Assembly (NCBI GenBank): GCA_019454985.1
Contig: JACFNF010000001.1
Coordinates: 1-64,000, forward strand
Source of the DNA: Bacteroidales bacterium
Lineage (GTDB): Bacteria > Bacteroidota > Bacteroidia > Bacteroidales > F082
Direction of reading: 5' to 3'
Length of the DNA stretch: 64,000 nucleotides
A program made the position numbers and the translations under genes. The stretch's first letter is position 1; each line of letters opens with the position of its first letter. Shown here one piece after another: positions 11,667 through 28,799 of this stretch. The notes under the pieces were generated by a model, which saw only the letters and a program-made list of their open reading frames with translations, was not told the origin of the DNA and did not search any database.

Positions 11667-12851
11667 TTAGACTATTGCGGATTTTTCGTCAGGTTTGTAA
11701 GTCAGTTGAGAATAAAGGATGAAGCCCCAGACCAGGATGCATGGAAAGGCTTTCATGACGTATGGTTTCACAAAAGCTTCGCGCAACTGGCGAGGGAAGA
11801 TGTCGGTTGGCGACAAGGAAACGAAGACGAATGCAACTGCAAAGAGCAGAATATTGAAAGTGTTTTTTGGGCTTTGGACAAACCAGATAGCAAGACCCGT
11901 CATGGCGATGACAAAAGTGGGCGATTCGGCTTTGTGGTTAAAGATGACCATCCAGATGAGGGCAGAGGACAAAATGAGCATCCTGAAATCCAGGTGCTTG
12001 TAACTTTTTATTTTCGCGAAAGGCAACATAAAGGCGAGCGCACCACTTGCTACCACCATATTTTTGTCAATGTCAATTGAAAACCATGCCTTTAACCAAC
12101 CCATAACCGAATAACCCATCGAAGCATCGTAATCTTCCGAAAGCATACGAAAATAACTAGCAATCAGTTTCAAATACTGCTCATTATCCACGAATATCAG
12201 AGGTAAAAGTGCGAAAACGACTGTCCAGAACAGCACATAAAGAGCAGATTTTGTCTTTTTTGGATAAAGCAGAAGAAGGGCAAGGGCCACGATGCCAAAT
12301 AGTTTAATGAAAGCTGAGGCTATGATGCACAAGGTGGCCAAAAAAGGCTTGTCGCGCTCGAGCAAGCCAAAGGAGAGCAAAATCAAGCCGGCAATAAGGG
12401 CATTGGATTGGCCGTTTTGCATAGACGTCATCGTTTCGATAAGGACAATGAGCAAGATAAGCCCTTTCCGCAGATTATCAAGACCGGGCAGCAAATACAC
12501 AGCGGCAACAAGCAAAAGTGCATTAAGCAGATTCCAAAGATTTACACCAAACCAATCCGGGAAAAAGCCAAAAAACCCAAAAAACACAGCAAAAGAAGGG
12601 GTGTATTTAAACAAATCCCAATGCTCTTGCGGATACAGTATATAAAGATCCTGATTGTTGACAAGGTGGTGGAACGAGTTGACGAAAATCGTGTAATTAT
12701 TGTAGCCGTTATAGGTTATCCCTCCATCCTCGTATGTTTTGGTGCCAAGGAGCGACTGTATTCCGGCGGCCAGAGCCAGCAGCGCAAACAATGCAACAAT
12801 AGCCTTTGGGTTAGAAACAAATTGTACGAGTTTTTCTTTCACCTCCTTCAT
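11667..12851 (-). CDS. GT87/DUF2029-like integral membrane glycosyltransferase
   Basis: The 394-aa product has about ten hydrophobic segments. In the first periplasmic loop the pattern NNQDLYILYPQEHWDLFKYT is readable; an Asp-x-Tyr followed by an aromatic FKYTP stretch is typical of the DUF2029/GT87 family. Known GT87 members are polyprenol-phosphate-mannose-dependent mannosyltransferases; donor and acceptor here are unknown. The gene is alone on its strand, between the IS remnant and the divergent susC. A TAATTTTG -7 box lies so close to the ATG that the transcript would be almost leaderless. Base use does not stand out from its neighbours. Confidence 0.75.
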   Translation of the reverse strand: MKEVKEKLVQFVSNPKAIVALFALLALAAGIQSLLGTKTYEDGGITYNGYNNYTIFVNSFHHLVNNQDLYILYPQEHWDLFKYTPSFAVFFGFFGFFPDWFGVNLWNLLNALLLVAAVYLLPGLDNLRKGLILLIVLIETMTSMQNGQSNALIAGLILLSFGLLERDKPFLATLCIIASAFIKLFGIVALALLLLYPKKTKSALYVLFWTVVFALLPLIFVDNEQYLKLIASYFRMLSEDYDASMGYSVMGWLKAWFSIDIDKNMVVASGALAFMLPFAKIKSYKHLDFRMLILSSALIWMVIFNHKAESPTFVIAMTGLAIWFVQSPKNTFNILLFAVAFVFVSLSPTDIFPRQLREAFVKPYVMKAFPCILVWGFILYSQLTYKPDEKSAIV

Positions 12852-12858
12852 TTTCGGA

Positions 12859-12866
12859 CAAAATTA
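12859..12866 (-). promoter_or_regulatory. -7 box of the GT87 gene
   Basis: On the minus strand the sequence reads TAATTTTG, matching TAnnTTTG. The expected start of transcription, about 7 nt further on, falls next to the ATG at 12851, which suggests a leaderless or nearly leaderless mRNA. No convincing -33 box. Confidence 0.45.
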
Positions 12867-13125
12867 CGGTAGATTATCCAAGCCACGAATCACACCACAA
12901 GATTTATTGGGCAAGATAGCTTTTTAGAATAGGTGCAGCCGGCTTCCCGCTGTTTAAAAGCTATTTAATTTTTTTCATAAATGAGGAGTAAAACCATCAA
13001 TTTTTAGTCGTTGGCAACCCAACAGGTTCTGCAAAAAACACCTTCTTTTAAATTATTGTGAGGCAATAAATTCATTGATGGTAAAATGTTTTCGTGCGAA
13101 ACAGAAAAATTTAACATAAGTTGTA

Positions 13126-13153
13126 TTGGCTCAAATGTTTCGTTTTAACTTTG
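13126..13153 (+). promoter_or_regulatory. susC promoter (TTG, 17 bp, TAACTTTG)
   Basis: TTG at 13126-13128 is followed after 17 bp by TAACTTTG at 13146-13153, a full match to the Bacteroidota TTG/TAnnTTTG pattern. An alternative TTG lies 5 bp upstream with 22-bp spacing. The leader to the ATG at 13203 is about 43 nt and contains the inverted repeat ATGTTTC/GAAACAT. Confidence 0.6.
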
Positions 13154-13202
13154 TGATGTTTCGAAAAACAAAGATGTGTGAAACATTAAACCAGAGCATG
13201 AT

Positions 13203-16200
13203 ATGAGTCGGTTTACGGGGTTTTTGTTTTTTTTCCTGCTGATACAGGCCACTGTCTTCGGGCAGCAATATGGCATCAGCGGCCGTGTCACCTCATCGGA
13301 AGATCAGTCGGCTATTCCCGGTGTTACGGTGAAAATCAAAGGCAAGCCGGTAGGCACAACCACCGACATTGACGGCCATTATTCATTGACGGCCAATCGG
13401 GGCGATGTTTTGGTTTTCAGTTATATCGGCTATGCTTCGCGGGAAGCTGTTGTCAGTAGTCCGGCGAAGATTGACATGATCCTTTCGCCTGCCGACCGTC
13501 AGTTGGACGAGGTCGTGGTGACAGCTTTAGGTCTCAGGCGACAGAAACGCGAGGTCGGCTACACCGTTGAGTCGGTACAAGCCAAAGAGATACAGCTTTC
13601 CAATGCCGACAATTTAGCCAGTGCCTTGAGCGGGCGTTCGGCAGGGGTTCAGGTCATCAATGCCAACGGCGTGGACGGTGGCACCACCCGTTTTGTCATT
13701 CGGGGCGTGCGCAACCTCAACGACCGCAACCACAACCAACCCCTGATTGTGGTTGACGGCATCCCCATGGAAAACGAGCCCGGCCTTACGGATATTGGCC
13801 GCGGTGTTGACTGGGGCTCGGCGCTCAACAACATCAACAGTTTCGATATCGAGAGTGTTGACATCCTGAAAGGACCTGCGGCCTCGGCACTCTACGGCTC
13901 GCGGGGCGCCAACGGTGTAGTGATGATTACCACCCGCCGCGGCAGCCGTCAGGGCGGCATTGGCATCACCTACAACCTGACACACAAGTTCACCCAGCCA
14001 TACCGTTACCGCGAAGTGCAAAACATTTACGGCGCCGGCGGTCCCCTTAGCTTTCTTGAACCCGCCTTTCAGCTCAATGCTGAGGGCGAGCCGATGTATC
14101 CTGCCGACATCTATTCCGATTTCGGGCCGCTGGGAGAACATACCGCCACCACTTTTGGCTATTATGGCTCAGCGGTTTCGTGGGGACCCGAGATGAAAGG
14201 CCAGATGATACGCTGGTGGGACGGACAGATGCGACCTTACTCGCCTCAACCCGACAACCTCCGGCTCTTTTTTCGCGATGCCGTATCCACCACCCACAAT
14301 ATCGCCTTCAGCGGCGGCGGCGAGATGGGTTCCTTGCGCGTCTCGCTCACCAACACAAGCCACGATGCCAGCATCCCCAACAGCAACTTCAAACAAACAA
14401 CCATCAACCTTGGTAGCAACCTCCGCATCTCGGAAAAAGTAACTTCCGACATCTCCATTTCGTATATGGACTATTACCGCCACAACAGCCCCACCATCGG
14501 CGAGTCGGAAAACTCCTTTGGCAAGGCCATGCTTTACAGCTGGCCTCGTAGCTACAAAGGCATTGAAAAAGAACATTATGCAAATGCCAACGGAAGCATG
14601 GTGGACTATCGCAGCAATTCACCTTTCTATTATATTGACAAAAATTTCTGGTGGGGTGTCTATAACAACAACACCAACCTGAGCCGTAAAAAACTCATAG
14701 GTACGGTAGCCCTCACCTACCAACTGACTCCCTGGCTGAGCGCCATGGGACGCTTTGGATTGGACAACACTTACAACGAATTTGAAACCCGCAACCGTCC
14801 GATTGACTCGCTGGGATTAGTCGGCGGTTATTATGGGCACAGCATGGGCCGCGATCAGGTGACCAATGGCGAATTTTTGTTTGTAGCCCAAAAAGAAAAC
14901 TTCTTCAACAGTGGTATTGATTTCAAGTTTTCTGCAGGAGGCAATGCCTGGTCGCGAACGCAATACGGCCTTTCGGCCCATTCGGGCACCTGGACACAGG
15001 CCTGGGTTTATGCTTTGAACAACGCCGAACGTCCTGAGCAACGCGGCATCTCCGAAGGCCGTTACGAAAAGAAAATCAACTCCCTCTATGCGCTGATGAA
15101 CCTTGGCTGGCGCAACTACCTTTTTATGGAGCTGACCGGCCGTCAGGATTGGTCATCAACCCTGCCGCCATACAGCAACAGTTATTTTTATCCTTCGGTC
15201 TCATTTAGTTTCCTGCCATCGGAAGCCTTCCGGTTCAATCAACCGTGGCTCAGCCAGTGGCGTCTGCGCGGGGCTTATGCCCTGACAGCCATTGACACCG
15301 ACCCCTATAAGCTCGATTTTGTCTATGGCGCCGGCAGCTTTGGCGGCGACAAAACCTCCTCACTCCCCTACACCATCCCACCCTATTCGCTCGAACCACA
15401 GTTTTCGGCCTCGTGGGAGGCCGGAACCATTATCGGCCTTCTCGACGACCGCATTGACCTGAACTTCACCTATTATTTTATCCGCAGCTACAACCAGATC
15501 ATGAACTCGCCTCTGCCCGTCTCGTCAGGAGCCGGCCAAATCACCATCAATACCGGCGAGCTTCAAAACAAAGGGATGGAGTTGATTATCAATACTATTC
15601 CGATCCACAACAAAAAGCTGACGGTGGAGGCAGGCCTCAATTTCACACGCAACCGCAACAAGGTGGTGAGCCTTGGCGAAGCCGCCGAGATTTACGAAAT
15701 TGCCAATATCTGGGGAGGCAACGGCCCGGCCATTGCCGTGAAACCCGGTCAGGATTTTGGTACTATCGTGGGTTGGGATTATGTGTACCATCCCGACAAC
15801 GGCCAGCCTATCCTGAACGATGCCGGTACACATTACCTGATGACCGAAGGCCGTGTACCCATCGGCAATGCCTCGCCCGATTTTTTGGCCGGGTTCACTA
15901 CTCGTTGGCGCTGGAAAGGATTCATGCTCAGTACGCTCATTGATTGCAAATGGGGTGGCGACATCTACAGCGGTTCGTACGTCACCGCCATGCACACCGG
16001 CCAAAGCCCTTCGACCCTCGTTGAACGCCAGGGCGGCGGTCTGCCCTATACCGACCCTGAAGGCAATGTGCGCAATGTGGGCGTGATTCTGCCCGGCGTT
16101 TATGCCGATGGCACTCCCAACGACAAGGTGGTGCACTATTATTTTAAATACATGCCCAATTTCGGTGGCTGGGGTAAGTTTCTCTCCAAGCCCGGCATCC

Positions 16201-16454
16201 TCGAAAACTCGTGGATAAAGATGCGCGAAGTGGCTCTGACCTATACCCTTCCGCCATCGCTGCTGAAAAAAGTAACTTTCGTGCGACAGCTCTCGCTCAA
16301 CCTCGTGGGTCGCGACCTGTTTTATCTCTACACCACTCTTCCTGACAAAGTGAACCCCGAAGGAGCCAACGGAGCCGGTAATGCTCAAGGCCTCGAATGG
16401 GGCGCTTTCCCAAGTTTCAGATCGTTCACCTTTGGCGCCAATATCCAACTCTGA
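13203..16454 (+). CDS. SusC/RagA-family TonB-dependent outer-membrane receptor
   Basis: Outer-membrane beta-barrel that imports a ligand captured by its SusD partner, driven by TonB. The 1083-aa product starts with a signal peptide (hydrophobic to about residue 20). A carboxypeptidase-regulatory-like domain follows (about 22-100, with ISGRVTSSEDQSAIPGVTV), then a TonB-box-like DEVVVTALG, the plug domain (about 115-235, with the SusC signatures PLIVVDGIPMEN and DILKGPAASALYGSRGANGV) and the barrel, ending in an aromatic-rich FRSFTFGANIQL. The susD gene starts 11 bp after its stop. The downstream PNGase F-like gene hints at glycans or glycopeptides as ligand; this is inference. Confidence 0.95.
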   Translation: MSRFTGFLFFFLLIQATVFGQQYGISGRVTSSEDQSAIPGVTVKIKGKPVGTTTDIDGHYSLTANRGDVLVFSYIGYASREAVVSSPAKIDMILSPADRQLDEVVVTALGLRRQKREVGYTVESVQAKEIQLSNADNLASALSGRSAGVQVINANGVDGGTTRFVIRGVRNLNDRNHNQPLIVVDGIPMENEPGLTDIGRGVDWGSALNNINSFDIESVDILKGPAASALYGSRGANGVVMITTRRGSRQGGIGITYNLTHKFTQPYRYREVQNIYGAGGPLSFLEPAFQLNAEGEPMYPADIYSDFGPLGEHTATTFGYYGSAVSWGPEMKGQMIRWWDGQMRPYSPQPDNLRLFFRDAVSTTHNIAFSGGGEMGSLRVSLTNTSHDASIPNSNFKQTTINLGSNLRISEKVTSDISISYMDYYRHNSPTIGESENSFGKAMLYSWPRSYKGIEKEHYANANGSMVDYRSNSPFYYIDKNFWWGVYNNNTNLSRKKLIGTVALTYQLTPWLSAMGRFGLDNTYNEFETRNRPIDSLGLVGGYYGHSMGRDQVTNGEFLFVAQKENFFNSGIDFKFSAGGNAWSRTQYGLSAHSGTWTQAWVYALNNAERPEQRGISEGRYEKKINSLYALMNLGWRNYLFMELTGRQDWSSTLPPYSNSYFYPSVSFSFLPSEAFRFNQPWLSQWRLRGAYALTAIDTDPYKLDFVYGAGSFGGDKTSSLPYTIPPYSLEPQFSASWEAGTIIGLLDDRIDLNFTYYFIRSYNQIMNSPLPVSSGAGQITINTGELQNKGMELIINTIPIHNKKLTVEAGLNFTRNRNKVVSLGEAAEIYEIANIWGGNGPAIAVKPGQDFGTIVGWDYVYHPDNGQPILNDAGTHYLMTEGRVPIGNASPDFLAGFTTRWRWKGFMLSTLIDCKWGGDIYSGSYVTAMHTGQSPSTLVERQGGGLPYTDPEGNVRNVGVILPGVYADGTPNDKVVHYYFKYMPNFGGWGKFLSKPGILENSWIKMREVALTYTLPPSLLKKVTFVRQLSLNLVGRDLFYLYTTLPDKVNPEGANGAGNAQGLEWGAFPSFRSFTFGANIQL

Positions 16455-16465
16455 TTCTCTGAGCC

Positions 16466-18070
16466 ATGAAAAAGATCCTCTTTCCCCTGCTGCTGACCAT
16501 CATCGCGCTGCTCCCCATAGCCTGCGACAAAGGTTTTGGCGAGCTCAACAAAAACCCTTTCGACTCCATTGAAACCGATATCGGACCTTTGTTCAACAAG
16601 GTAACCGCCTCCTTGGTGCAAGGCTGGAACGAACAGTTTTATATCAACAACGAAGTCCTTTACCGGCAAACCGAACTGGGAGCGCTTACCCAATATGCCT
16701 GGCCCAACGTCAATATCGGCGCCGAAGAAATCTGGTCGAACTATTATACCACTCTGGCGGTCATCCGCGACCTTGAAAAACGTTTTGAAACCTATCAGGG
16801 AAGTCAGGATGAGTTGGTAAATGCCAAGGCCATGCTCTATATCCTGTTGGCCGTGAAGACTTTCAAGGTGACCGACCTGTTTGGCGACATTCCCTTTTTC
16901 AATGCCGGCCGTGGCTTCGAGTCACTGGAATACGCCCGTCCGGCCTTCGATTCACAGAAAGACATCTATCTTTATCTGCTCGACAAGCTTCAATGGGCCG
17001 ATGAAAACATCAATGCCGTCTCAAGCCCGCAAACCCCGGCCGGTGTTCCGTTATACAGCCTGGCAGCCTACGACAACCTATTTAATGGCGACATGATGAA
17101 ATGGCGGCGCTTTGCCAACTCGCTCCGGCTGCGCTATGCCTTGCGTATGTCGAACCGTTTGCCCGAAGAGGCCGGCCAGATCATCTCCGAAATTGTCAAT
17201 GGCAACAAGCCCATCCTTACCGGAACGGGTAACGATGTGGTGATGTCGCCGTTGGCGCAAGGCTGGGAAAACAACGCCGTCAACTGGTCGTTTCGCGAGC
17301 ACGGTAAGCTCCGCATGGGCGAGACCATCTGGCAATGGCTCAGCAACAATGATGCAACTGATGGTAGCGGTATCTTCGATCCAAGGGCATACATATTTTT
17401 CGAAACCAATAATGCCGACGAATGGAAGGCCTTCCCGCAAACACTGACGCCCGAAACCCCTACCGAAGGCGGTGTGCCATACAACCTCCATCGCGACAAC
17501 AGTTACAACGTCAAAGGCTCGGCCTGCATCTATTCGCCGTTTAACTACTACCTGATCAGGGAAGAGAAGACCATCCCCGAAATCCTGATGACAGTGTCCG
17601 AGGTGAAATTCATCCTTTCCGAAGCCTATTTCAGGGGCATCGGCGTTGCGCCTGACCAGAGCATGGCACAGGGTCTTTATGCCGAAGGCATGGTAGCCTC
17701 GATGACGTATTGGCAAAATATCGTCAAAAATACCGCACGTTGGGTGAACCACCAGCCCTTTCTGGGTGAATGGGATTTTTATGCCGTGCTGGCCAATCCG
17801 AAAACTGACATTTTCAGTGCTTCGTCCGAACAGCAGTTGCGTATGATCTATGCCCAACGCTGGCTCGATGCGTTCAGGCAGCCTGCCGAAGCCTTTGCCC
17901 TTGCCCGCCGAACCTTAGCAACACCCCGCACTGGCACCCCGCTGAGCTATTTCAGATTGCCCTATCCCGATTCGGAATCGCTCAACAACCACGAAAACTG
18001 GGCCAGTCAGGTTGAGAAAATGGGCGGCGCCGATGAGTCGGGAGTAAAAATCTGGTGGATGGAACCTTAA
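16466..18070 (+). CDS. SusD/RagB-family outer-membrane lipoprotein (SusD-like_2 type)
   Basis: Surface lipoprotein that forms the lid of the SusC transporter and binds the nutrient. The 534-aa product has a signal peptide with lipobox LPIAC (Cys about residue 20). An early NKNPF(D) motif, a helical TPR-like body (for example ILLAVKTFKVTDLFGDIPF) and a C-terminal RRTLATPRTGTPLSYFRLPY segment fit the SusD-like_2 branch (PF12771) rather than classical SusD. It sits between susC and the T9SS-secreted PNGase-like gene. The pair is the uptake half of a probable utilisation locus. Confidence 0.93.
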   Translation: MKKILFPLLLTIIALLPIACDKGFGELNKNPFDSIETDIGPLFNKVTASLVQGWNEQFYINNEVLYRQTELGALTQYAWPNVNIGAEEIWSNYYTTLAVIRDLEKRFETYQGSQDELVNAKAMLYILLAVKTFKVTDLFGDIPFFNAGRGFESLEYARPAFDSQKDIYLYLLDKLQWADENINAVSSPQTPAGVPLYSLAAYDNLFNGDMMKWRRFANSLRLRYALRMSNRLPEEAGQIISEIVNGNKPILTGTGNDVVMSPLAQGWENNAVNWSFREHGKLRMGETIWQWLSNNDATDGSGIFDPRAYIFFETNNADEWKAFPQTLTPETPTEGGVPYNLHRDNSYNVKGSACIYSPFNYYLIREEKTIPEILMTVSEVKFILSEAYFRGIGVAPDQSMAQGLYAEGMVASMTYWQNIVKNTARWVNHQPFLGEWDFYAVLANPKTDIFSASSEQQLRMIYAQRWLDAFRQPAEAFALARRTLATPRTGTPLSYFRLPYPDSESLNNHENWASQVEKMGGADESGVKIWWMEP

Positions 18071-18129
18071 ACCATTTGTAAAATGCGATTGAACAACAAA
18101 AACATCAATAATTCTAAAAATAAAACATC

Positions 18130-20628
18130 ATGAAAAAGATCACTTTACATCTTTTATTTTTACTGGCGGCCTTTGTTGTGCAGGCTCAAACCGTTTCGGT
18201 TTACGACTTCAACACCTTACCCGACGGTAATTTAAACAACCAGGACGGCTGGAAGACCATCCAGCAGACCGCCTCCGGCTCGCCCGACTTCGTGATTGGC
18301 TATACGGCCGACGGAGTGGTGTCGCCCGATGGCAGCAAAGCAGTTTTCTATCCGTTTGGCGGGCCCGGTGTCGGACGTACAGCCACACGCAAATCATCGC
18401 CCAACTTCGAGTTTAGTTTTGCCGACGGCCTTGTGGAAGTAGAGGTAGATATGCACAAAAATTGGTGGGGTGTGTTCTTTGGTGTAGGTTATGATGCTGA
18501 TGGCGACGGCCATATTGCCCCCGGTCTTCCTACCGAGCCCAACGACGGCGGCATCCGGCTATTTTGCCGCGATGTGCCTCCGGCCTTGAACCAGGTTGTA
18601 TTGCCCAACGGCACCGAAATCCCTTTCACGGCCAACAATGACGGATGGACACGCTATAAGCTTGTCATGGACTTCACAGCCAATGGCGGTGCCGGAACTC
18701 TCGCCCTGTTCTATAAGCCCGGCGCCGTTGGCGAATGGATGCCGGCCAGCGAGGTACAAGGCGTCAGCATGCAGCTCACCCCGGGTTCAGGCGATAAGAA
18801 CGACAACACCAAATGGGATGGAATATTTTTCCATTCACAAGGCGGAACAGGCGCTTTCGACAATATCTTGGTGCGCCAGCCCGATCTTTCAGGTTTATAC
18901 CAGTTTATCAATTTCCCGGCCATCTCCAACAAGTTGACCACCGCAAACCCATTTGAGCTGGAAGCTACGGCAAGTTCGGGTCTTCCTGTACAATACAGCA
19001 TCGTGGAAGGTCCGGCCACAATCAGCGGCAACGTCCTGAGTCTTACCGGGCAAGCCGGCATAGTGAAGGTGAAGGCATCACAGCCCGGTAACGATGTGTA
19101 TGCTCCGGCAAACGATATCATCAACGAGTTTGAAGTGGTGGATGCCTCGGCCTATTTTGCCAGCCTGAAAGTACGGCGACCCTCCAACCTCACCAAAGTC
19201 TATATGCAAAGCCTTGCCCCTGTGATGTTTTTAGCCGAAACCCATGTGGAACATCCCGAGGTGCTGAGTGTGAACACTGTGGAGTTTATCATCAACGGAG
19301 TCCATCTGCCATTGATTGACAACGGAAACGGCTTCTATTCCACAAAATGGACACCGCCAGCCTTTGGCAATTATTCCATGACCGTGAAAAGCACCATCAC
19401 CGAAGGCAATGTCACAACCCAAACGGTTGATTTTGAGGTGACAAACATAGTGAGCAACCTTCAGGTACAGACTTTTGCCGGTGAAACCGTAACGCCCAAC
19501 AATCAGATTGTTACAGGAACATTTATCTTCCCAACATATGTTGGCAGTTTCAACAACATTAATTCGGTGTTAACGGTGAGTTGTCCTCCGGGAGGCTGCG
19601 ACCCCTATGACCGTGTTTCGCACGTTGAAGTGAAAGACCCCAATGGAAACTGGATCGAGATCTATCGCTATATCACTCCTTTCGGCGTGGGTTGCTCCGA
19701 TCAGGTGGACGTCACCGACTACGCTTCATTACTTCAGGGCGAGGTGGATATGCGCTATCATTGTATTCTATGGGATAAAGGGTTGAATATCAATATTCTT
19801 TACGAATTCACCGCCGGGACGCCCGCCTATTCCTATTCGTCAGTGACACCTATCTGGCGCGATGAATACCCGTTTGGCAACATGAGCAATCTTCAGCCTG
19901 TACCGCCGGCCTTTTTTACTTTCCCTGAAAATGTGCAGGCCGCCCGCCTGAAAGTGATTACCACAGGACACAACTGGGGCGAAAACAACACAGGCAATGC
20001 CGCTGAGTTTTACCATGCTACCCACTACATCAGGGTGAACAATGTGCGCGTTCACACCCAGGATTTATGGTCGATATGCAATCCAAATCCGGCCGGATGT
20101 CAGCCACAAAACGGCACCTGGGTCTATCCGCGTGCCGGATGGTGCCCGGGTTCCATCAGTAAAATTTTCGATTTCGACATGAGCCAGTACGTCAATGTAC
20201 CCAATTTCAAAATGGAGTATGAATTTGACCCCAACTACAAAGACCTATGCAGCTCCGCCAATCCCGATTGCGTTTCGGGTGTAACCTGTCCGAACTGCGA
20301 AGATACCTTCAACCCCCTGCTCTTTGTAAGTGCCCATATCATCTCTTATAGCAACAACATCCTGGTTAACTCGCCCGAACGCCAGGCCTCCAACGTGCGC
20401 ATTATCCCAAATCCGGCCAGTGGCTCGTTCCGTCTTCTGGCCGTCAATGTTCAGGGGACTGAAGGCTCGGGAGTGGAGATTCTGAATCAGGCAGGGAAAG
20501 TGGTTGAAGCATGCCTATGGGACGGTCAGGAAAAAACTTTCGACATCCGCCATTTGAAAGCCGGACTGTATTTCGTGAAAATCGTAAGTCCTGCAGGTAC
20601 TGAGCTGAAAAAACTATTGGTATATTAA
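18130..20628 (+). CDS. Secreted PNGase F-like protein with T9SS sorting domain
   Basis: Predicted amidase that would cut N-linked glycans from asparagine. The 832-aa product has a signal peptide ending AQA/Q at about residue 20. A jelly-roll/LamG-like domain spans about 23-255, with a calcium-loop-like DADGDGH at 122-128. Two Ig-like segments follow (about 258-338 and 340-440), then two domains matching PNGase F (about 445-745) and a T9SS type A tail (about 755-832, IPNPASGSFR through to KKLLVY). Compared from memory with the Elizabethkingia enzyme, Asp494 in CDPYDR matches catalytic Asp60, Glu626 in AAEFYHATHYI matches Glu206, and RAGWCPG at 668-674 is conserved. The position of Glu118 appears to be Ile546, so activity may differ. 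It follows susD by 59 bp. Confidence 0.85.
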   Translation: MKKITLHLLFLLAAFVVQAQTVSVYDFNTLPDGNLNNQDGWKTIQQTASGSPDFVIGYTADGVVSPDGSKAVFYPFGGPGVGRTATRKSSPNFEFSFADGLVEVEVDMHKNWWGVFFGVGYDADGDGHIAPGLPTEPNDGGIRLFCRDVPPALNQVVLPNGTEIPFTANNDGWTRYKLVMDFTANGGAGTLALFYKPGAVGEWMPASEVQGVSMQLTPGSGDKNDNTKWDGIFFHSQGGTGAFDNILVRQPDLSGLYQFINFPAISNKLTTANPFELEATASSGLPVQYSIVEGPATISGNVLSLTGQAGIVKVKASQPGNDVYAPANDIINEFEVVDASAYFASLKVRRPSNLTKVYMQSLAPVMFLAETHVEHPEVLSVNTVEFIINGVHLPLIDNGNGFYSTKWTPPAFGNYSMTVKSTITEGNVTTQTVDFEVTNIVSNLQVQTFAGETVTPNNQIVTGTFIFPTYVGSFNNINSVLTVSCPPGGCDPYDRVSHVEVKDPNGNWIEIYRYITPFGVGCSDQVDVTDYASLLQGEVDMRYHCILWDKGLNINILYEFTAGTPAYSYSSVTPIWRDEYPFGNMSNLQPVPPAFFTFPENVQAARLKVITTGHNWGENNTGNAAEFYHATHYIRVNNVRVHTQDLWSICNPNPAGCQPQNGTWVYPRAGWCPGSISKIFDFDMSQYVNVPNFKMEYEFDPNYKDLCSSANPDCVSGVTCPNCEDTFNPLLFVSAHIISYSNNILVNSPERQASNVRIIPNPASGSFRLLAVNVQGTEGSGVEILNQAGKVVEACLWDGQEKTFDIRHLKAGLYFVKIVSPAGTELKKLLVY

Positions 20629-20693
20629 GCCTAACGTTCAATTAACATCCGTTTTTCTTTTGCTAAACCATTGAAAAACTAAAAACCACAAGA

Positions 20694-20736
20694 AAATCCT
20701 CCGCAGAAAAATTTCACCCTGCGGGGGATTTTTTTG
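20694..20736 (+). terminator. Rho-independent terminator after the PNGase-like gene
   Basis: A 13-bp stem pairs 20694-20706 with 20719-20731 (AAATCCTCCGCAG with CTGCGGGGGATTT, one T-G wobble) around a 12-nt loop. A T run to 20736 follows. It closes the susC-susD-PNGase transcription unit. Confidence 0.8.
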
Positions 20737-20869
20737 GTTTTATTGGCCGGGCCATCCTGATTAAAAATCAATGTCATTACTATTTACTGCCAGCATTTTG
20801 ATCAGGCCGCCAAGGCCGGTTTTTTGATTTTACATCAGCTTTTGGGCTGTCGTTTTGTTTAAAAACCCC

Positions 20870-20877
20870 TATTTTTG
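20870..20877 (+). promoter_or_regulatory. -7 box of the serine-hydrolase gene
   Basis: TATTTTTG matches TAnnTTTG. It overlaps an alternative TTG start at 20875 and so argues for translation from the ATG at 20896. No clear -33 TTG at the usual spacing. Confidence 0.5.
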
Positions 20878-20895
20878 CCGGCTTTAAGACAAAAG

Positions 20896-22125
20896 ATGCG
20901 AAGGTTTTCCAGATATTTCCTTGTTTTGTTTATTCTTTTTTGGGCCTACAACTGTGGCGGCGATCGCGACCGGCCCGATGTTTTCGATGAGATTGCACGC
21001 CTCAAGGTGATGCCCGCCTCGAAGATATATAAGTTAGTTCCCGAAAAAAATCTTATCCGCAAGGTGAATGCGATTGACAGCGTGTTTAACCGCTTGCAAC
21101 AAGCCACCGGCTTCAATGGAACTGTGCTTTACGCCGAAAACGACCGGGTGGTTTATCAAAAAGCCTTCGGCTATGCCAACCCCGTCAAGCGTCAGGGTCC
21201 TCTAAGCCCCGACGGACAGTTTGAACTGGCATCGGTATCCAAGATGTTTACCGCCACCGCCATCCTCATCCTCAAGGAGAGGGGACAGCTTGCCATTGAC
21301 GACGATTTACGCAGGTTTATCCCCGAATGGCCATATCAGGGTATCACTCTGCGACATCTGTTGACGCATCGCTCGGGCTTGCCACGCTACGAATATTTGG
21401 CCGATACCTATTGGCCCGACCAAAGCCGGCCAATGACCAATGAAGGCATGATACGGATGTTCGTGCAAAACAAGCCGGAAGTGTATTTTCAGCCCGACAA
21501 AGGATTCCACTACTGCAACACCAATTATGCCTTACTGGCTTCGGTGGTCGAAAAAGTGAGTAAAGTGCCGTTTTACCGATTCATGGACGAAAATATTTTC
21601 AAACCGGCCGGCATGAACAGGTCGTTTATCTATCATCTGCCTGCAGACAGTGTGGTGAGTGGTTACCGTCAGGTGGGTGTTCCGGGCTACGACCAGCATG
21701 GACGACGGTTGGTGAGGGTTCCCAACGACCGGCTTAACGGTGTGATGGGCGACAAAGGCATGTTTTCCACCGTACTCGATCTTTATCATTTCGACCTCGC
21801 CCTGAACCACGAAATCCTGCTCAAAAAAGAAACCCTGCGCGAGGCCTACTCGCCCGGAAGCCCGGTCAGAAAAATCCGAAAAGACAACTATGGCTTCGGC
21901 TGGCGCACCCATGCCGAAAGCGACAGCGCCGTTTACCATTACGGCTGGTGGAAAGGCTATCGCTCCTTCTTTCTGCGCGACCTTGGACAACATAAAACCC
22001 TGATTGTACTCACCAACAAATCGTCGGCACCCGGCTCGGAGCATTTCTGGGATATCATCAACGACAAACGCTATCCCATCGGAAAGGCATCAGCCTTTAT
22101 GCCGGTTGAATTACGGCTGAAATAG
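20896..22125 (+). CDS. Beta-lactamase-fold serine hydrolase, lipoprotein
   Basis: Member of the class C beta-lactamase/DD-peptidase/esterase superfamily. The product is 409 aa from the ATG at 20896; an in-frame TTG at 20875 is rejected because it lies in the -7 box. A signal peptide ends at lipobox-like AYNC, so the protein is probably a lipoprotein. The catalytic Ser-x-x-Lys is in ELASVSKMFTATA, the Tyr-x-Asn motif is YCN in GFHYCNTNYALL, and the third motif is HYGWWKG near the C terminus. Substrate cannot be told from sequence. It has its own promoter after the terminator, so it is near, but not clearly part of, the SusCD locus. Confidence 0.85.
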   Translation: MRRFSRYFLVLFILFWAYNCGGDRDRPDVFDEIARLKVMPASKIYKLVPEKNLIRKVNAIDSVFNRLQQATGFNGTVLYAENDRVVYQKAFGYANPVKRQGPLSPDGQFELASVSKMFTATAILILKERGQLAIDDDLRRFIPEWPYQGITLRHLLTHRSGLPRYEYLADTYWPDQSRPMTNEGMIRMFVQNKPEVYFQPDKGFHYCNTNYALLASVVEKVSKVPFYRFMDENIFKPAGMNRSFIYHLPADSVVSGYRQVGVPGYDQHGRRLVRVPNDRLNGVMGDKGMFSTVLDLYHFDLALNHEILLKKETLREAYSPGSPVRKIRKDNYGFGWRTHAESDSAVYHYGWWKGYRSFFLRDLGQHKTLIVLTNKSSAPGSEHFWDIINDKRYPIGKASAFMPVELRLK

Positions 22126-22288
22126 ACTGAATCCGGCCGTTCGGGGGAAAAGCATCTCCAATTCGTACATCTAAGAAGTTTGAGACTTCAGGTGTGCGAC
22201 ACATATATATGGCTCCCCTATTCGCCCATCGGCCCTATGAGGCATTTCAAAAAAAGCTATCCATCTTTATCATATCCAGCTTCTTTCA

Positions 22289-22296
22289 TATATTTG
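22289..22296 (+). promoter_or_regulatory. -7 box of icmF
   Basis: TATATTTG matches TAnnTTTG, 20 bp before the icmF ATG at 22316. No clear -33 box. Confidence 0.45.
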
Positions 22297-22315
22297 TTTT
22301 TTTATCCTGACTCTT

Positions 22316-25300
22316 ATGACACAGCAAGCCTCAACCATCTACAAACCCCTGCATCATTTGCGAATCGTAACAGCGGCATCGCTTTTCGACGGACACGATG
22401 CCTCCATCAATATTATGCGGCGCATCATCCAGTCGGGTGGAGCCGAAGTGATTCATCTCGGTCACAACCGCTCGGTTCACGAAATTGTGAACACGGCCAT
22501 TCAGGAGGATGTACAGGCCATTGCCATCACCTCGTATCAGGGCGGCCATCTTGAATATTTCAAATACATGTACGATCTTTTGCAGGAGGCGGGTTGCGGA
22601 CATATCCGCATTTTTGGCGGAGGCGGCGGCGTCATCCTTCCTGCCGAAGCTGAGGAGTTGCACGCCTACGGCATTGCCCGCATCTTTTCGCCCGATGATG
22701 GCCGCTCGATGGGGTTGCAAGGCATGATCAACGAATTACTGAAAAAATCTGATTTCCCCACCGGTGCATCCGTCACCGACGACCTTGACAAGCTCAGCCC
22801 GCGCAACCATCGCTTGATCGGCCAACTAATCTCGGCTGCCGAAAACTATCCCGAGACATCGGCTCCTTTGATGGAGAAGTTGCGCCAAAAAATCGTAAAA
22901 AAAGCTCCGGTGCTCGGCATCACCGGCACCGGCGGAGCCGGCAAGTCGAGTCTGGTGGATGAGATTGTGCGGCGTTTCCTACACGACCAGCCCGATAAGA
23001 TGCTGGGCATCATCTCGGTTGACCCCTCCAAACGTCGTAGCGGAGGTGCGTTGCTGGGCGACCGCATCCGCATGAACGCCATTGATCATCCCCATGTGTA
23101 TATGCGCTCACTGGCCACACGGCAGTCCAACTTAGCTATGTCGAAATATGTCCGCGATGCCGAAGCCATCCTGCAGGCCGCCGGCTTCGACCTTATCCTG
23201 CTCGAAACTTCCGGCATTGGCCAAAGCGACACCGAGATTATTGACCACAGCGATATCGCACTATATGTGATGACACCCGAATATGGAGCAGCCACCCAGC
23301 TCGAAAAAATTGACATGCTCGACTTTGCCGACCTCATTGCGCTGAACAAGTTCGACAAACGAGGTGCCGCCGATGCGTTGAGGGATGTGAAGAAGCAATA
23401 TCAGCGCAACCACGGACGCTTTGCCGACGACCCTGCCACCATGCCTGTGTTTGGCACAGTAGCTTCGCAGTTCAACGACCCCGGCGTCAATGCCCTCTAT
23501 CTGGCCATTCTGCAAATACTCAACGAAAAAGCCGGCGCAGCTTTCACCCCTCATACAAAATTATTGGGTGAGGCACCGGAAAAGATCTCTATCATCCCTT
23601 CAAAACGGGTGCGTTATCTGAGCGAGATAGCCGAAACTGTTCGTGCCTACAACGGCTGGGCACAGAAACAGAGTCGGGCAGCCCAGCGTCTGCAAAGCCT
23701 GAGGCAGAGTCGTCAGCTCCTCTTAGAAGAATCTGATCAGGCCGACACTCAAACGCTCGACGAGCTCATCCGGCGCGAAGAACGACGGCTCGATCCACAG
23801 GTGGCCGACCTCATCGAAGGCTGGGAAGAGAAGAAAAAACGCTATAGCGACCCATGGTATATTTACCAGGTGAGAGACAAAGAAATCAGGGTGGCCACCC
23901 ATACCGAGAGTCTCTCGCGTCTTCAGATTCCAAAAGTAGCATTGCCGCCTTTCCGTGCCTGGGGCGAGATTGTCAGGTGGTCGTTGCTCGAGAATGTGCC
24001 GGGCGAGTTTCCTTTCGCGGCGGGCGTGTTCGACTTCAAACGTGAAGAAGAAGACCCGACCCGCATGTTTGCCGGTGAAGGAGGCCCCGAGCGTACCAAT
24101 CGCCGCTTCCATTATGTCTCGCGCGGCTTGGCCGCCAAACGGCTTTCAACCGCCTTCGACTCGGTGACCCTTTATGGCGAAGACCCACACCGACGACCCG
24201 ACATCTACGGCAAGATAGGCAATGCCGGCGTGTCAGTCGCCTGCCTCGACGATGCCAAAAAACTCTATTCCGGATTCAACCTCGCCGACAACAAAACCAG
24301 TGTCAGCATGACCATTAACGGGCCTGCACCAACCATGGTGGGCTATTTTATGAATGCCGCCATTGACCAGCAATGCGAGCTTTTTATCCGCAAAAACGGT
24401 CTCGAAAAGGAAACCCACGCCATCATTGACGAGATCTATCGCCAGAAAAGACTTCCCCGACCACGCTATCAAGGTCCATTACCTGAAGGGAACAACGGGC
24501 TGGGACTGATGCTCCTAGGTGTTACGGGCGACATGGTACTTCCAGCAGAGGTGTATGGCCGCATCAAAGCCGAAACCCTGCAAAAAGTGCGCGGTACCGT
24601 GCAGGCCGACATCCTGAAAGAAGATCAGGCGCAAAATACCTGTATCTTCTCGACCGACTTTGCCCTCAAACTCATGGGTGATGTCCAGGAATATTTTATC
24701 CGCCATCAGGTACGCAATTTTTATTCGGTTTCTATCTCGGGCTATCATATTGCAGAAGCCGGCGCCAACCCCATCAGTCAGCTTGCCTTTACGCTGGCCA
24801 ATGGCTTCACCTATGTGGAGTATTATCTCTCGCGAGGGATGCACATTGACGACTTTGCCCCCAACCTGAGTTTCTTTTTCTCCAACGGCATTGACCCCGA
24901 ATTTTCGGTCATTGGCCGTGTAGCCCGTCTGATATGGGCTAAAGCCATGAAGCTCAAATACAACGCCAACGAACGCTCACAGAAGCTCAAATACCATATC
25001 CAGACTTCCGGCCGCTCGTTGCACGCACAAGAGATTGATTTTAACGATATCCGCACCACTCTGCAAGCGCTTTATGCTATCTACGACAACTGCAACTCGC
25101 TGCACACCAATGCCTACGACGAAGCTATCACCACCCCGACGGAAGAAAGCGTTCGCAGGGCAATCGCCATCCAGATGATCATCAATCACGAACTGGGCTT
25201 GGCCAAAAACCAGAATCCGATGCAAGGCTCATTCATCATCGAAGAGCTTACCGCATTGGTTGAAGAAGCCGTGATGGCCGAGTTTGACCGCCTCACCGAG

Positions 25301-25690
25301 CGCGGGGGCGTGCTTGGTGCCATGGAAACCATGTATCAGCGCGGCAAAATACAGGAGGAGTCGCTCTATTACGAAACTTTGAAACACAGCGGAAAGCTTC
25401 CCATCATGGGCGTGAACACCTTTTTGAGCAGCAAAGGCTCGCCAACGGTAATTCCAGGCGAAGTTATCCGGGCTACCCCCGAAGAAAAAGAATACCAAAT
25501 TCAGATGCTGGAAAATCTGCATCAATGCTGGAAAGATGAAGCCGCCGACAAGCTCGCATCGCTGCGAAAAGCTGCTCTGAACAACGAAAATGTGTTCGAA
25601 GCCCTGATGGAAACATCAAAATACGCTTCCATAGGCCAAATCACACGATTGCTTTTTGAAGTTGGTGGGCAATACCGCCGCAATATGTAA
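22316..25690 (+). CDS. icmF: Fused isobutyryl-CoA mutase IcmF
   Basis: Adenosylcobalamin-dependent enzyme that interconverts isobutyryl-CoA and n-butyryl-CoA (some also isovaleryl/pivalyl-CoA), fused to its own G-protein chaperone. The 1124-aa product has the cobalamin-binding domain at about 14-140, with the DxHxxS/G-type base-off motif DGHDAS (His27). A MeaB-like GTPase domain follows at about 195-420, with P-loop [12 protein letters not shown] at 201-212, and the mutase barrel at about 540-1110 ([36 protein letters not shown]). This three-part order is diagnostic of IcmF; stand-alone methylmalonyl-CoA mutase has no central GTPase. It is a single-gene unit with its own -7 box. Confidence 0.95.
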
Positions 25691-25787: not shown

Positions 25788-25868
25788 CAGTTTAAACTAC
25801 GGTATGAGGCAGGTTCTATTCCTTGTTTGTAAAGCCTCATCAAAAACAAACACATACTTCGATTGACT

Positions 25869-28799
25869 ATGAGACAATTTCTATTCACCATCGTTTTGCT
25901 TTTATCAGTAATGCTGATACACGGGCAGACGGGTGAACCGGTAAAAGCCAGTTCCACCGGAAATCTTCCTGCCCCATTGAGTGTTCCATCCATCGCGCAG
26001 CAGTTGCGCGACGGCACTTTCAAAGGTGTTGATCCGAACGAGCCGGTTCGGATGGGGCATCCCAAGCGCAAAGGCGCCAACATGACCATTCCGGGCAAAG
26101 GCCTTCCGATTGACAAAGACCCTTTGGTCGAACATCAAAAATCGGCCCGGCGAACACCCGGCCGTGAACCAAAATTAGTTTTCGACGCCAATACTTCTAA
26201 TTATACCCCCTCAGACCCAACAGGGGCAATTGGGCCAAATCATTATGTCGGCGGGTGGAACACTGGTTTCCGGATATTCGATAAGCAAGGAAATCCGTTG
26301 ACCCCGACAGCCTCGCTCTCCACCCTTTTTCCGGGAAACAATTTAGGCGACCCCATTGTATTCTATGATGTGGCTGCTGACCGTTTTATTATCACCGAGT
26401 TTGACCAGAGCCCCAATGGCTTCAACGTAGCCATCTGCAAAGGCCCCGACCCGGTAAACGACGGTTGGTGGATTTACACCACAGGCTTCACCACCGGCCA
26501 GTTTCCTGATTATCCTAAATTCAGTGTTTGGTCTGATGGTTATTATGTCACGGCCAACATCAACACTAACAACAAGTTGTTTGTGATCGAAAGAGATTCT
26601 GCTTTGTTGGGTAGAACTGCACGTTTTGTGTCGTTTCCGCTCACCGGTATCAAAACCTCAGGGTTCTACAGTCCGCAGGCTTTCAACGTCACCAACGGCG
26701 ACCTTCCGCCACGCGGTAATGCCTCTGTCGTTTATATGCAGGATGATGCCTGGAGCGGCATCACTTTTGACCATCTGAAAGTGTGGACGGCCAATGTCAA
26801 CTGGGACAATCCATCGCAAAGCACCATCTCACAGCCACAGATTATCGAAACAGCACCATTTATTGCCGTTTTCGACGGGGGTTCATTTTCCAATCGTCCG
26901 CAGCCTTCGGGCCCTCAGCAGGATGTGCTTCAGGCTACTATCATGAATCAGGCACAATATCGCCGCTTCCCGGATCACAACAGTGCAATCTTCAACTTTG
27001 TGGTGGACACTGACCCAACTGCCGGTGAGCTGGCCGGCGTGCGCTGGTACGAATTGCGGCAATCGGCCGATGGAGAGCCCTGGGAAATCTATCAGGAAGG
27101 CACTTACATCTCGCCCTATGGCAACAAAGACGCCTTTTCGGCCAGCATGGCCATGGACGGACAGGGAAATATCGGCATGGGCTACACCACCGTCAGCATC
27201 AACGAAAAGATTGCCATTTATTATACCGGACGTTTTGCATCCGATCCGCCAGGGCAGATGACAGTGGACGAAACCCTGATTGCCCAAAGCCAGGCCAATA
27301 ATCCATCGAACCGTTTGGCCGACTATGTTCACCTGACCGTTGACCCAACAGATGATAAGACTTTCTGGCATATTGCCGAATATTTCAATAACAGCCGCAA
27401 AGACGTTGTTGGTGTTTTCCAGATTGCCGGTGAAAACCACAATGATGTTGGCGCCACTTCTATCCTGACTCCTAACGACGGCGTATTGAACCAGGAGGAA
27501 CCCGTAACCATCCGACTGTTCAATTACGGAATCGCGGGGCAACGCGATATCCCTGTTTTTTACCGCGTTGACGATGGCCCAGCAGTTGTTGAAGTCTTTG
27601 CCGATAGTTTAGCTCCAGGAGCAACGGCAGATTATGTTTTCGACACCAAAGCCGACCTGAGCATTGCCGGAAAAACTTATGTCATTGTGGCCGGATCGGC
27701 GCTCGAAGGAGACGAAGGAGCTGCTAACGACAGCATCACCAAGACGGTGACGCATCTCAACGCGAATGACATAGGAGTATCGGCCATCACCTCACCACAG
27801 TCGGGAACCGGAGTCAACATGCCCGAACCCGTGACGGTAACCATCAAAAATTTCGGTGTCGCTCCCATTGCCGATTTTAGTGCAGGCTATCTGTTTGGAT
27901 CACAAACAGTGATTGAACCTGTAACCCAGTCTGTAGAGCCGGGCCAGCAAATCAGTTTTACTTTCCAGGAGCCCGTTGTTTTTCCGGCCTTGGGCAATTA
28001 CACCCTGAAGGCATTTACCAACGCACCTCAGGATGCCAATGCTGCCAACGACACCACCACAGTAGTCATTACAAAGCACAACTGTATGCCCACCTCCGAT
28101 TGCTCGTATGGCGACGGGTTATCGCTCTTCAGGCTCAACAACCTGAGCAACGCCACTTCATGCAGCGAGGGAGGCTATGCCGATTATACCAATATGGTAG
28201 CCTTCATCGAACAGTCGGAAACCTATGAATTAGAAGTAGAAACCCATTATGGCGATCAATATGTAAAAGTTTGGATTGATTACAACGATAACTTTCTTTT
28301 TGAGGATAACGAAGTGATTATCAACAATATCGTCCTTGGAAGCGGGCAAGCCTCCGGCACTTTCAATGCCGTTGTTCCGATAACGATTCCCGACACAGTG
28401 GCTCTTGGTGAACATCTGTTGCGGGCTCGTACTTCGTGGGATGTGCCTGTGGAAGATGCGTGCGGTGATGTGGAATATGGCGAAACGGAAGACTATAAAG
28501 TGAATATCGGTATGTACACAAGCCTTACCACGCGCGCACTCAACGATGCAAAACTTCAGATCAAAACCTTAGGTCAAAACCGTTTTGAAGTGGTACTTGA
28601 TACGCCTGATGTGAATGAGATTCTGGTTCTCAATCTTCATAACGCTCTTGGGCAAAAACTCATTGAAAACCGGGTGGCCAAGGTAAATGGAAAATACACC
28701 TATCCGTTAGACCTCTCTTATGCCGAAGCCGGAGTTTATATCCTGCGCATCGGCACTTACACATACGGAAAAGTGGAAAAGATACGGGTAGAAAAATAA
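25869..28799 (+). CDS. Large secreted protein with GEVED and T9SS sorting domains
   Basis: Predicted exported or surface protein of 976 aa from the ATG at 25869; the upstream in-frame TTG at 25863 is less likely. A signal peptide ends near HGQ. The N-terminal ~450 residues, from DPTGAIGPNHYVGG to IAEYFNNSRKDVVG, look like a repeat-built beta-rich (propeller-like) domain that I cannot name. Two CARDB-like beta-sandwiches follow, each starting (H)NDVGA/NDIGVSAI. Then comes a GEVED-type domain (about 740-880, with VKVWIDYNDNFLFEDNE and ETEDYKV) and a C-terminal T9SS-type segment ending YGKVEKIRVEK. No catalytic motif is seen. It could be an adhesin or a hydrolase scaffold; the function is unknown. 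Confidence 0.8.
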   Translation: MRQFLFTIVLLLSVMLIHGQTGEPVKASSTGNLPAPLSVPSIAQQLRDGTFKGVDPNEPVRMGHPKRKGANMTIPGKGLPIDKDPLVEHQKSARRTPGREPKLVFDANTSNYTPSDPTGAIGPNHYVGGWNTGFRIFDKQGNPLTPTASLSTLFPGNNLGDPIVFYDVAADRFIITEFDQSPNGFNVAICKGPDPVNDGWWIYTTGFTTGQFPDYPKFSVWSDGYYVTANINTNNKLFVIERDSALLGRTARFVSFPLTGIKTSGFYSPQAFNVTNGDLPPRGNASVVYMQDDAWSGITFDHLKVWTANVNWDNPSQSTISQPQIIETAPFIAVFDGGSFSNRPQPSGPQQDVLQATIMNQAQYRRFPDHNSAIFNFVVDTDPTAGELAGVRWYELRQSADGEPWEIYQEGTYISPYGNKDAFSASMAMDGQGNIGMGYTTVSINEKIAIYYTGRFASDPPGQMTVDETLIAQSQANNPSNRLADYVHLTVDPTDDKTFWHIAEYFNNSRKDVVGVFQIAGENHNDVGATSILTPNDGVLNQEEPVTIRLFNYGIAGQRDIPVFYRVDDGPAVVEVFADSLAPGATADYVFDTKADLSIAGKTYVIVAGSALEGDEGAANDSITKTVTHLNANDIGVSAITSPQSGTGVNMPEPVTVTIKNFGVAPIADFSAGYLFGSQTVIEPVTQSVEPGQQISFTFQEPVVFPALGNYTLKAFTNAPQDANAANDTTTVVITKHNCMPTSDCSYGDGLSLFRLNNLSNATSCSEGGYADYTNMVAFIEQSETYELEVETHYGDQYVKVWIDYNDNFLFEDNEVIINNIVLGSGQASGTFNAVVPITIPDTVALGEHLLRARTSWDVPVEDACGDVEYGETEDYKVNIGMYTSLTTRALNDAKLQIKTLGQNRFEVVLDTPDVNEILVLNLHNALGQKLIENRVAKVNGKYTYPLDLSYAEAGVYILRIGTYTYGKVEKIRVEK

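What the first reader, a model, noticed from the sequence alone, without database searches (positions are those of the whole stretch)
18130..20628. PNGase F-like enzyme delivered by the type IX system, next to SusC/SusD
Seen: residues ~445-745 keep the PNGase F pattern (SCPPGGCDPYDR, IYRYITPFGVG, GTPAYSYSSV, AAEFYHATHYI, RAGWCPG), behind a jelly-roll and two Ig-like segments and ahead of a T9SS tail. Asp494 and Glu626 align with catalytic Asp60 and Glu206 of Elizabethkingia PNGase F (alignment from memory). Glu118 seems replaced by Ile546, so specificity or activity may differ. The known enzyme is a compact two-domain protein; this modular form looks distinct.
Basis: partly seen in the sequence, partly recalled or inferred. 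Interest (0 to 1): 0.68.

Follow-up and report, generated by a model that had tools for sequence, protein, structure and literature searches.

The report
Secreted glycan-cutting enzyme with paired transporter
This gene most likely encodes a surface-delivered enzyme of the known PNGase F family that strips N-linked sugar chains off proteins; it sits in one operon with a two-part outer-membrane importer, and in sampled relatives the enzyme and this importer type always occur together, which suggests a dedicated N-glycan (or glycoprotein) feeding cassette.

Summary
18130-20628 encodes 832 aa: signal peptide, beta-sandwich module, two Ig-like domains, PNGase F catalytic domain (residues ~442-742) and T9SS type A tail. 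PF09113 hits at 3e-13, PNGase F (1pnf) at 3e-29; PF09112 stays below cut-off. A catalytic-domain model (pLDDT 94.8) matches PNGase F (TM 0.85). D494=D60 and E626=E206, invariant in 85 of 85 relatives, as is R668=R248. I546 does replace E118, but that position has 13 residue types and at least 30 changes on the family tree; Gly, Asp and (aligned here) Ala occur there in characterised active enzymes. It is not evidence of lost activity.

The more interesting feature is the operon. SusC, SusD and the PNGase form one unit with a strong terminator. In 100 genomes of the family, the same 35 hold both this SusD type and this PNGase type, and 65 hold neither; 34 of 36 SusD genes lie directly upstream of a PNGase. 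This points to a dedicated, glycosidase-free surface N-glycan cassette with enzyme paralogues in many genomes. Enzyme activity, specificity and imported product remain untested. Verdict: new variant of a known kind.

The parts
13146..13153 (+). TAnnTTTG, a Bacteroidota -7 promoter-like element upstream of the operon
   Evidence: Only match in the 352-bp intergenic region; consensus match only, not evidence of function
13203..16454 (+). SusC/RagA-type TonB-dependent outer-membrane receptor, 1083 aa
   Evidence: TIGR04056 561.9 bits against cut-off 368; Plug PF07715 E 2e-21; 80% identical orthologue in the same order in L003
16466..18070 (+). SusD-like surface lipoprotein, 534 aa (lipobox-like LPIAC in the signal peptide); 11 bp after SusC
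   Evidence: PF12771 E 8.7e-48, PF12741 E 1.1e-41; perfect co-occurrence with the PNGase in 100 genomes
18130..20628 (+). PNGase F-like enzyme, 832 aa, whole ORF; 59 bp after SusD
18130..18189 (+). signal peptide (aa 1-20, ...FVVQAQ)
   Evidence: hydrophobic N-terminus read directly from the sequence; helix 2-16 in the model
18190..18879 (+). N-terminal beta-sandwich module, aa ~21-250, no Pfam hit; the same place holds Laminin_G_3 or F5/8-type C modules in relatives
   Evidence: beta strands in model; Pfam survey of 25 relatives
18892..19449 (+). two Ig-like beta domains, aa ~255-340 and ~341-440
   Evidence: secondary structure of the model; sequence well conserved in the family
19453..20355 (+). 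PNGase F catalytic domain, aa ~442-742
   Evidence: model pLDDT 94.8, pTM 0.91; Foldseek 1pnf E 7.5e-24, TM 0.85/0.83, 27% identity over 326 columns
19609..19611 (+). codon of D494, equivalent to catalytic Asp60
   Evidence: invariant 85/85
19765..19767 (+). codon of I546, at the position of Glu118 of PNGase F
   Evidence: position variable (13 states, at least 30 changes)
20005..20007 (+). codon of E626, equivalent to catalytic Glu206
   Evidence: invariant 85/85
20401..20622 (+). type IX secretion C-terminal sorting domain, type A (aa 758-831)
   Evidence: PF18962 E 1.1e-9, TIGR04183 above cut-off
20690..20735 (+). strong terminator-like hairpin that closes the operon
   Evidence: -24.2 kcal/mol, z -4.74 against shuffles, none of 200 as stable; scan

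Best explanation
A three-gene operon, SusC - SusD - PNGase. The enzyme is exported through the inner membrane by its signal peptide, then by the type IX system to the cell surface or medium (inferred from the tail; SprA is present in the genome). Its PNGase F-fold domain hydrolyses the amide bond between Asn and the first GlcNAc of N-glycoproteins, with D494 as main catalytic residue and E626 as partner, leaving Asp in the protein and a free glycan (inferred from homology and conserved residues). The N-terminal beta module and Ig-like domains probably hold substrate or space the catalytic domain from the cell (inferred). The dedicated SusC/SusD pair then imports the product, most likely the released glycan, through the outer membrane (inferred from strict genetic pairing). 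No glycosidase is in the operon, so trimming must be encoded elsewhere; one GH92 is present in the genome. E118 is not needed as such in this family; its loss may widen or shift tolerance around C3 of the core GlcNAc (for example core alpha-1,3-fucose).
For: Family and fold. Catalytic residues invariant in 85/85 relatives with 0 changes on the tree, R668 likewise. All three active-site features that PMC12381499 gives as conserved among PNGases are present: aromatic-Asp-positive (Y493-D494-R495), His+Glu (H614, E626), Trp/Tyr (W576 is a candidate, 77/77 Trp in family). Secretion: TIGR04183 and PF18962 above cut-off, SprA_N E 1.5e-164 in the genome and about 96 T9SS tails genome-wide. Pairing: in the own genome the only two strong SusD relatives lie directly upstream of the only two PNGase-like genes that pass PF09113; in 100 genomes of the family, PNGase-positive and SusD-positive genomes are the same 35 and 65 have neither; 34 of 36 SusD genes have the PNGase immediately downstream on the same strand; in a wider set 52 of 94 PNGase genes with enough upstream sequence follow SusD and 13 more follow another PNGase; PNGase and SusD distances correlate r 0.905 over 55 operons, 0 of 2000 permutations.
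Against: No enzyme assay. PF09112 below cut-off. I546 in place of E118. Co-occurrence counts and distance correlation share species phylogeny, so they overstate the number of independent events. 29 of 94 PNGase genes stand without SusD directly upstream, mostly extra paralogues. The imported product could be the peptide instead. Coordinates of the model are not returned, so the D494-E626 distance was not measured.
Confidence: 0.78

Rival explanations
1. Same enzyme, but SusC/SusD imports the peptide part: the PNGase unmasks glycoproteins for surface proteolysis and the RagAB-like transporter takes up peptides, with the glycan left outside or taken by other systems.
For: No glycoside hydrolase, fucosidase or sugar kinase lies in the operon or beside it; SusD matches PF12741 'SusD and RagB', and RagAB-type systems import peptides (general knowledge). 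A serine hydrolase of the beta-lactamase fold and an S41 peptidase lie further downstream, but behind a terminator.
Against: The PF12741/PF12771 match does not decide the ligand; PNGase-linked SusC/SusD pairs in Bacteroides lie in N-glycan loci with GH92, GH29, GH3 (PMC9522356).
Confidence: 0.25
2. Catalytically dead or weak PNGase-like lectin: loss of E118 makes it a surface glycan-binding protein, with SusD as partner.
For: E118 is an active-site residue of PNGase F that also blocks the alpha-1,3-fucose site (PMC9522356); here it is Ile.
Against: D494, E626 and R668 are under perfect conservation, the other active-site features are kept, and characterised enzymes lack Glu at this position (Asp in group 1, Gly in type II, PMC9522356; Ala in Ngly2 by profile alignment).
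Confidence: 0.08
3. The enzyme keeps the fold and dyad but mainly cuts another N-glycosyl linkage (for example bacterial, archaeal or algal N-glycans with unusual cores) rather than GlcNAc2-Asn eukaryotic glycans.
For: Active-site rim positions (546, 548, 578, 579) are among the fastest changing of those checked, and genomes carry up to four paralogues, which suggests diversified specificities. The organisms are uncultivated Bacteroidales of unknown diet.
Against: All characterised relatives, including remote ones, act on eukaryotic N-glycans (PMC12381499, PMC12753239).
Confidence: 0.15

Closest known systems
PNGase F (Elizabethkingia meningoseptica, 1pnf)
   Same: Two-jelly-roll catalytic fold (TM 0.85), D60/E206/R61/R248 equivalents, CP..CD and RAGWCPG motifs
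   Different: 27% identity in the structural alignment; E118 is Ile, W59 is Tyr, His614 is added as in most other PNGases; extra N-terminal modules and T9SS tail; SusC/SusD operon
PNGaseDo (Draconibacterium orientale) and PNGaseL (Flavobacterium akiainvivens), PMC12381499
   Same: PNGase F-superfamily enzymes with accessory beta modules and C-terminal T9SS signals; [quoted passage not shown] both active on glycoproteins
   Different: Sequences were not at hand, so identity could not be measured; most of the six enzymes studied there were orphan genes, and no SusC/SusD pairing is mentioned
Group 1 and 2 PNGases of Bacteroides (BF0811, B035DRAFT_03341), PMC9522356
   Same: Same superfamily; some group 2 genes lie beside SusC/SusD (B. 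sartorii only with a SusC/SusD pair)
   Different: Predicted periplasmic (type I signal), so cleavage after import; no T9SS tail reported; group 2 has a bowl-like N-terminal domain; Asp or Gly at the E118 position
Zebrafish Ngly2 (9lwg), PMC12753239
   Same: Remote homologue (profile E 2.5e-23); Asp and Glu essential by mutation
   Different: Lysosomal acid enzyme with protease-associated domain; Ala at the E118 position by the profile alignment
Sus-type polysaccharide utilisation loci
   Same: SusC/SusD pair and a surface enzyme in one operon
   Different: No glycoside hydrolase and no sensor-regulator in the operon

Membership tests
PNGase F superfamily | PF09113 N-glycanase_C above curated cut-off | tested here: met
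   50.1 bits against 25; 25 of 25 family members
PNGase F superfamily | PF09112 N-glycanase_N above curated cut-off | tested here: not met
   12.5 bits against 22.4; only 4 of 25 members match at E 0.01. The N-terminal half is nevertheless present by phmmer and by fold, so this reads as model divergence, not absence
PNGase F superfamily | Two adjacent beta-sandwich (jelly-roll) subdomains of PNGase F fold | tested here: met
   predicted model pLDDT 94.8, Foldseek 1pnf E 7.5e-24, TM 0.85; prediction, not experiment
PNGase F superfamily | Catalytic Asp60 and Glu206 | tested here: met
   D494, E626; 85/85 conserved
PNGase F superfamily | D494 and E626 face each other in one cleft | tested here: inconclusive
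   High-confidence model superposes on PNGase F with both residues aligned, but coordinates were not returned, so no distance was measured
PNGase F superfamily | Aromatic-Asp-positive motif, His+Glu loop, Trp/Tyr loop (PMC12381499) | tested here: met
   Y493-D494-R495, H614/E626, W576 (assignment of W576 to that loop is inferred)
PNGase F superfamily | Release of N-glycan from glycoprotein | not testable with these tools
   needs an assay
PNGase F type I (E118 present) | Glu at position 118 | tested here: not met
   I546
PNGase type II (group 2) | Gly at position 118 and N-terminal bowl-like domain | tested here: not met
   I546; the N-terminal part is followed by two Ig-like domains and 4r4z/7zgn match only the catalytic part well
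T9SS type A cargo | C-terminal sorting domain above cut-off and T9SS in the genome | tested here: met
   TIGR04183 36.2 bits against 23, PF18962 38.9 against 27; SprA_N E 1.5e-164
Sus-like polysaccharide utilisation locus | Adjacent SusC and SusD | tested here: met
Sus-like polysaccharide utilisation locus | Carbohydrate-active glycoside hydrolases and regulator in the locus | tested here: not met
   The operon ends at a strong terminator after the PNGase; neighbours are GT87 (divergent) and a beta-lactamase-fold hydrolase

The most novel reading that the evidence does not exclude
A glycosidase-free surface N-glycan cassette, SusC-SusD plus T9SS-delivered PNGase with interchangeable N-terminal binding modules, spread and multiplied through uncultivated Bacteroidales, in which deglycosylation happens outside the cell before import (the opposite order to that proposed for Bacteroides PNGases), and whose paralogues differ at the E118/core-fucose position to cover different N-glycan cores.
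Probability: 0.45. Interest if true: 0.55.

Novelty: new variant of a known kind. Interest (0 to 1): 0.42.

Why it matters
PNGases are standard tools in glycobiology, and few natural variants have been assayed. [quoted passage not shown] The strict pairing with one SusC/SusD type gives a testable claim about what happens after cleavage, and contrasts with the periplasmic, import-first model for gut Bacteroides PNGases.

Tried and rejected
(1) Compensation of the lost E118 by an acid nearby (E579 or D578, next to PNGase F D157), as the type II enzyme does with another Glu. At first sight E579 goes with I546 (6 of 7 Ile rows), but those six are one clade; phylogenetically independent pairs show no association (median p 1). 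Not supported. (2) E118 loss as a special feature of this gene: rejected, the position is E in only 26 of 85. (3) Novelty of the modular T9SS form: rejected by PMC12381499. (4) Horizontal gain of the operon: within the genus (9 genomes) only this genome has this clade; the nearest relatives are MAGs UBA6248, Bact_23, 4-aug_S1_065 and a genome of another family, which hints at gain or patchy loss; but GC and GC3 are ordinary and the flanking genes are not syntenic in the genus, so no empty site could be shown. Left open. (5) Full-length model alone: its active-site loops were below pLDDT 50, so the domain was remodelled with 98 sequences. (6) No known RNA element in 12000-23000. (7) Plasmid collection: only two remote hits.

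Full report
CHECK. The ORF 18130-20628 (+) codes for 832 residues and contains all quoted motifs. Pfam finds N-glycanase_C (PF09113, E 3.2e-13, 50.1 bits, cut-off 25) and the T9SS tail (PF18962, E 1.1e-9); N-glycanase_N (PF09112) stays below its cut-off (12.5 against 22.4 bits). TIGR04183 (T9SS type A) is above cut-off. By sequence the best solved relatives are PNGase F entries (1pnf E 3.3e-29, residues 458-700). A profile of 39 relatives also reaches zebrafish Ngly2, the B. fragilis and B. vulgatus PNGases, 7zgn and PNGF-II.

ACTIVE SITE. D494 aligns with D60, R495 with R61, E626 with E206, R668 with R248 and I546 with E118. In 85 catalytic domains of the close family (window included) D494, E626 and R668 are invariant; position 546 is Glu in only 26. 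On a tree built without these columns, D494, E626 and R668 show no change, position 546 shows 13 states and at least 30 changes, and Glu versus other changes at least 8 times. Known active enzymes vary here too: Asp in Bacteroides group 1 and Gly in type II/group 2 (PMC9522356), and Ala in Ngly2 by the profile alignment; Ngly2 is active and loses all activity when its Asp or Glu is mutated (PMC12753239). The three active-site features that PMC12381499 calls broadly conserved are present as Y493-D494-R495, H614/E626 and W576 (W576 assignment inferred). So the Ile is real, but it argues for a specificity question and not for inactivity.

STRUCTURE. A full-length model with 25 sequences was confident in the beta domains and poor in the active-site loops (mean pLDDT 80.2) but still matched 1pnf (E 2.1e-20, TM 0.80 on the target). 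A catalytic-domain model with 98 sequences reached pLDDT 94.8 and pTM 0.91 and matched 1pnf at E 7.5e-24, TM 0.85/0.83, rmsd 2.4, followed by all other solved PNGases of this superfamily.

MODULES. The catalytic domain follows a beta-sandwich (aa ~21-250) and two Ig-like segments (~255-340, ~341-440). Among 25 full-length relatives all have PF09113 and the T9SS tail, while the N-terminal module differs: Laminin_G_3 in nine, F5/8 type C in one, no Pfam match in others including this one. The family thus swaps its front module on a constant enzyme and tail. T9SS is present: SprA_N E 1.5e-164 and about 96 sorting tails in the genome.

OPERON. SusC (13203-16454), SusD (16466-18070, 11 bp later) and the enzyme (59 bp later) lie on one strand; a TAnnTTTG element precedes SusC and a very stable hairpin (-24.2 kcal/mol, z -4.74) follows the enzyme, before the next gene at 20875. 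Orthologues in L003 keep SusC-SusD-PNGase at 80, 78 and 72% identity, L005 keeps SusD-PNGase. In the own genome the only two strong SusD relatives (the window one and C7:142792-144393) each lie directly upstream of the only two genes that hit PF09113. In a sample of 100 genomes of the same family, those with a strong PNGase match and those with a SusD match (E 1e-30 or better) are the same 35; the other 65 have neither; 34 of 36 SusD genes have the PNGase immediately downstream on the same strand, one exception (G482) having them on different contigs. In the broader neighbourhood survey 52 of 94 PNGase genes directly follow SusD, 13 follow another PNGase in a tandem array and 29 stand alone; many genomes have up to four copies. 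Pairwise distances of PNGase and SusD correlate at r 0.905 over 55 operons (0 of 2000 permutations). These statistics share species phylogeny and are not independent events, but adjacency and the two independent pairs inside one genome argue for a working partnership.

MECHANISM. Shown: fold family (by prediction and sequence), conserved catalytic residues, sorting tail, operon and pairing. Inferred: export to the surface, hydrolysis of the GlcNAc-Asn amide, and import of the product by SusC/SusD. No glycosidase is in the operon; one GH92 mannosidase-family gene is elsewhere in the genome, other N-glycan glycosidases were not searched for. Bacteroides PNGases carry type I signals and were proposed to act after import (PMC9522356); the T9SS tail here implies the reverse order.

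COMPARISON AND NOVELTY. Modular, T9SS-tailed PNGases are known (PNGaseDo, PNGaseL; PMC12381499), and PNGase genes beside SusC/SusD pairs are known in Bacteroides, once with nothing else (B. sartorii; PMC9522356). What I did not find described is a glycosidase-free SusC-SusD-T9SS PNGase unit as the rule in a group of Bacteroidales, with module swaps and paralogue expansion. Literature searches for PNGase F with T9SS, and for PNGase with SusD and PUL terms, returned no paper in this library, which holds open-licence papers only. I file it as a new variant of a known kind.

Noticed in passing
G000:C7:140485-141366 (L002, L146): The genome has a second PNGase F-like gene (50% identical catalytic domain, N-terminal LamG-like region, Met at the E118 position) with its own SusC/SusD pair directly upstream.
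   Followed up: yes
L097/L167 (G492:C4:92756-101670), L103/L197 (G688:C63): Tandem arrays of three to four PNGase F-like genes behind one SusC/SusD pair in other Bacteroidales.
   Followed up: partly
window 25863-28799: Another secreted protein (978 aa) with CARDB-like and GEVED domains and a sub-threshold T9SS tail (PF18962 16.9 bits); note the TTG start call of the ORF list.
   Followed up: no
window 22316-25690: Fused B12-binding, MeaB GTPase and acyl-CoA mutase protein of 1124 aa (IcmF-like architecture), 79-83% identical across the genus.
   Followed up: no
window 49160-51643 (-): 827-aa ORF without any Pfam match at E 1e-5.
   Followed up: no
L008, L009, L012-L035: A second large class of PNGase F-like proteins of about 1,130-1,370 aa, and shorter ones of about 440 aa, is widespread in the phylum; in several of the aligned members the Asp60 region could not be aligned because of a long insertion.
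   Followed up: no
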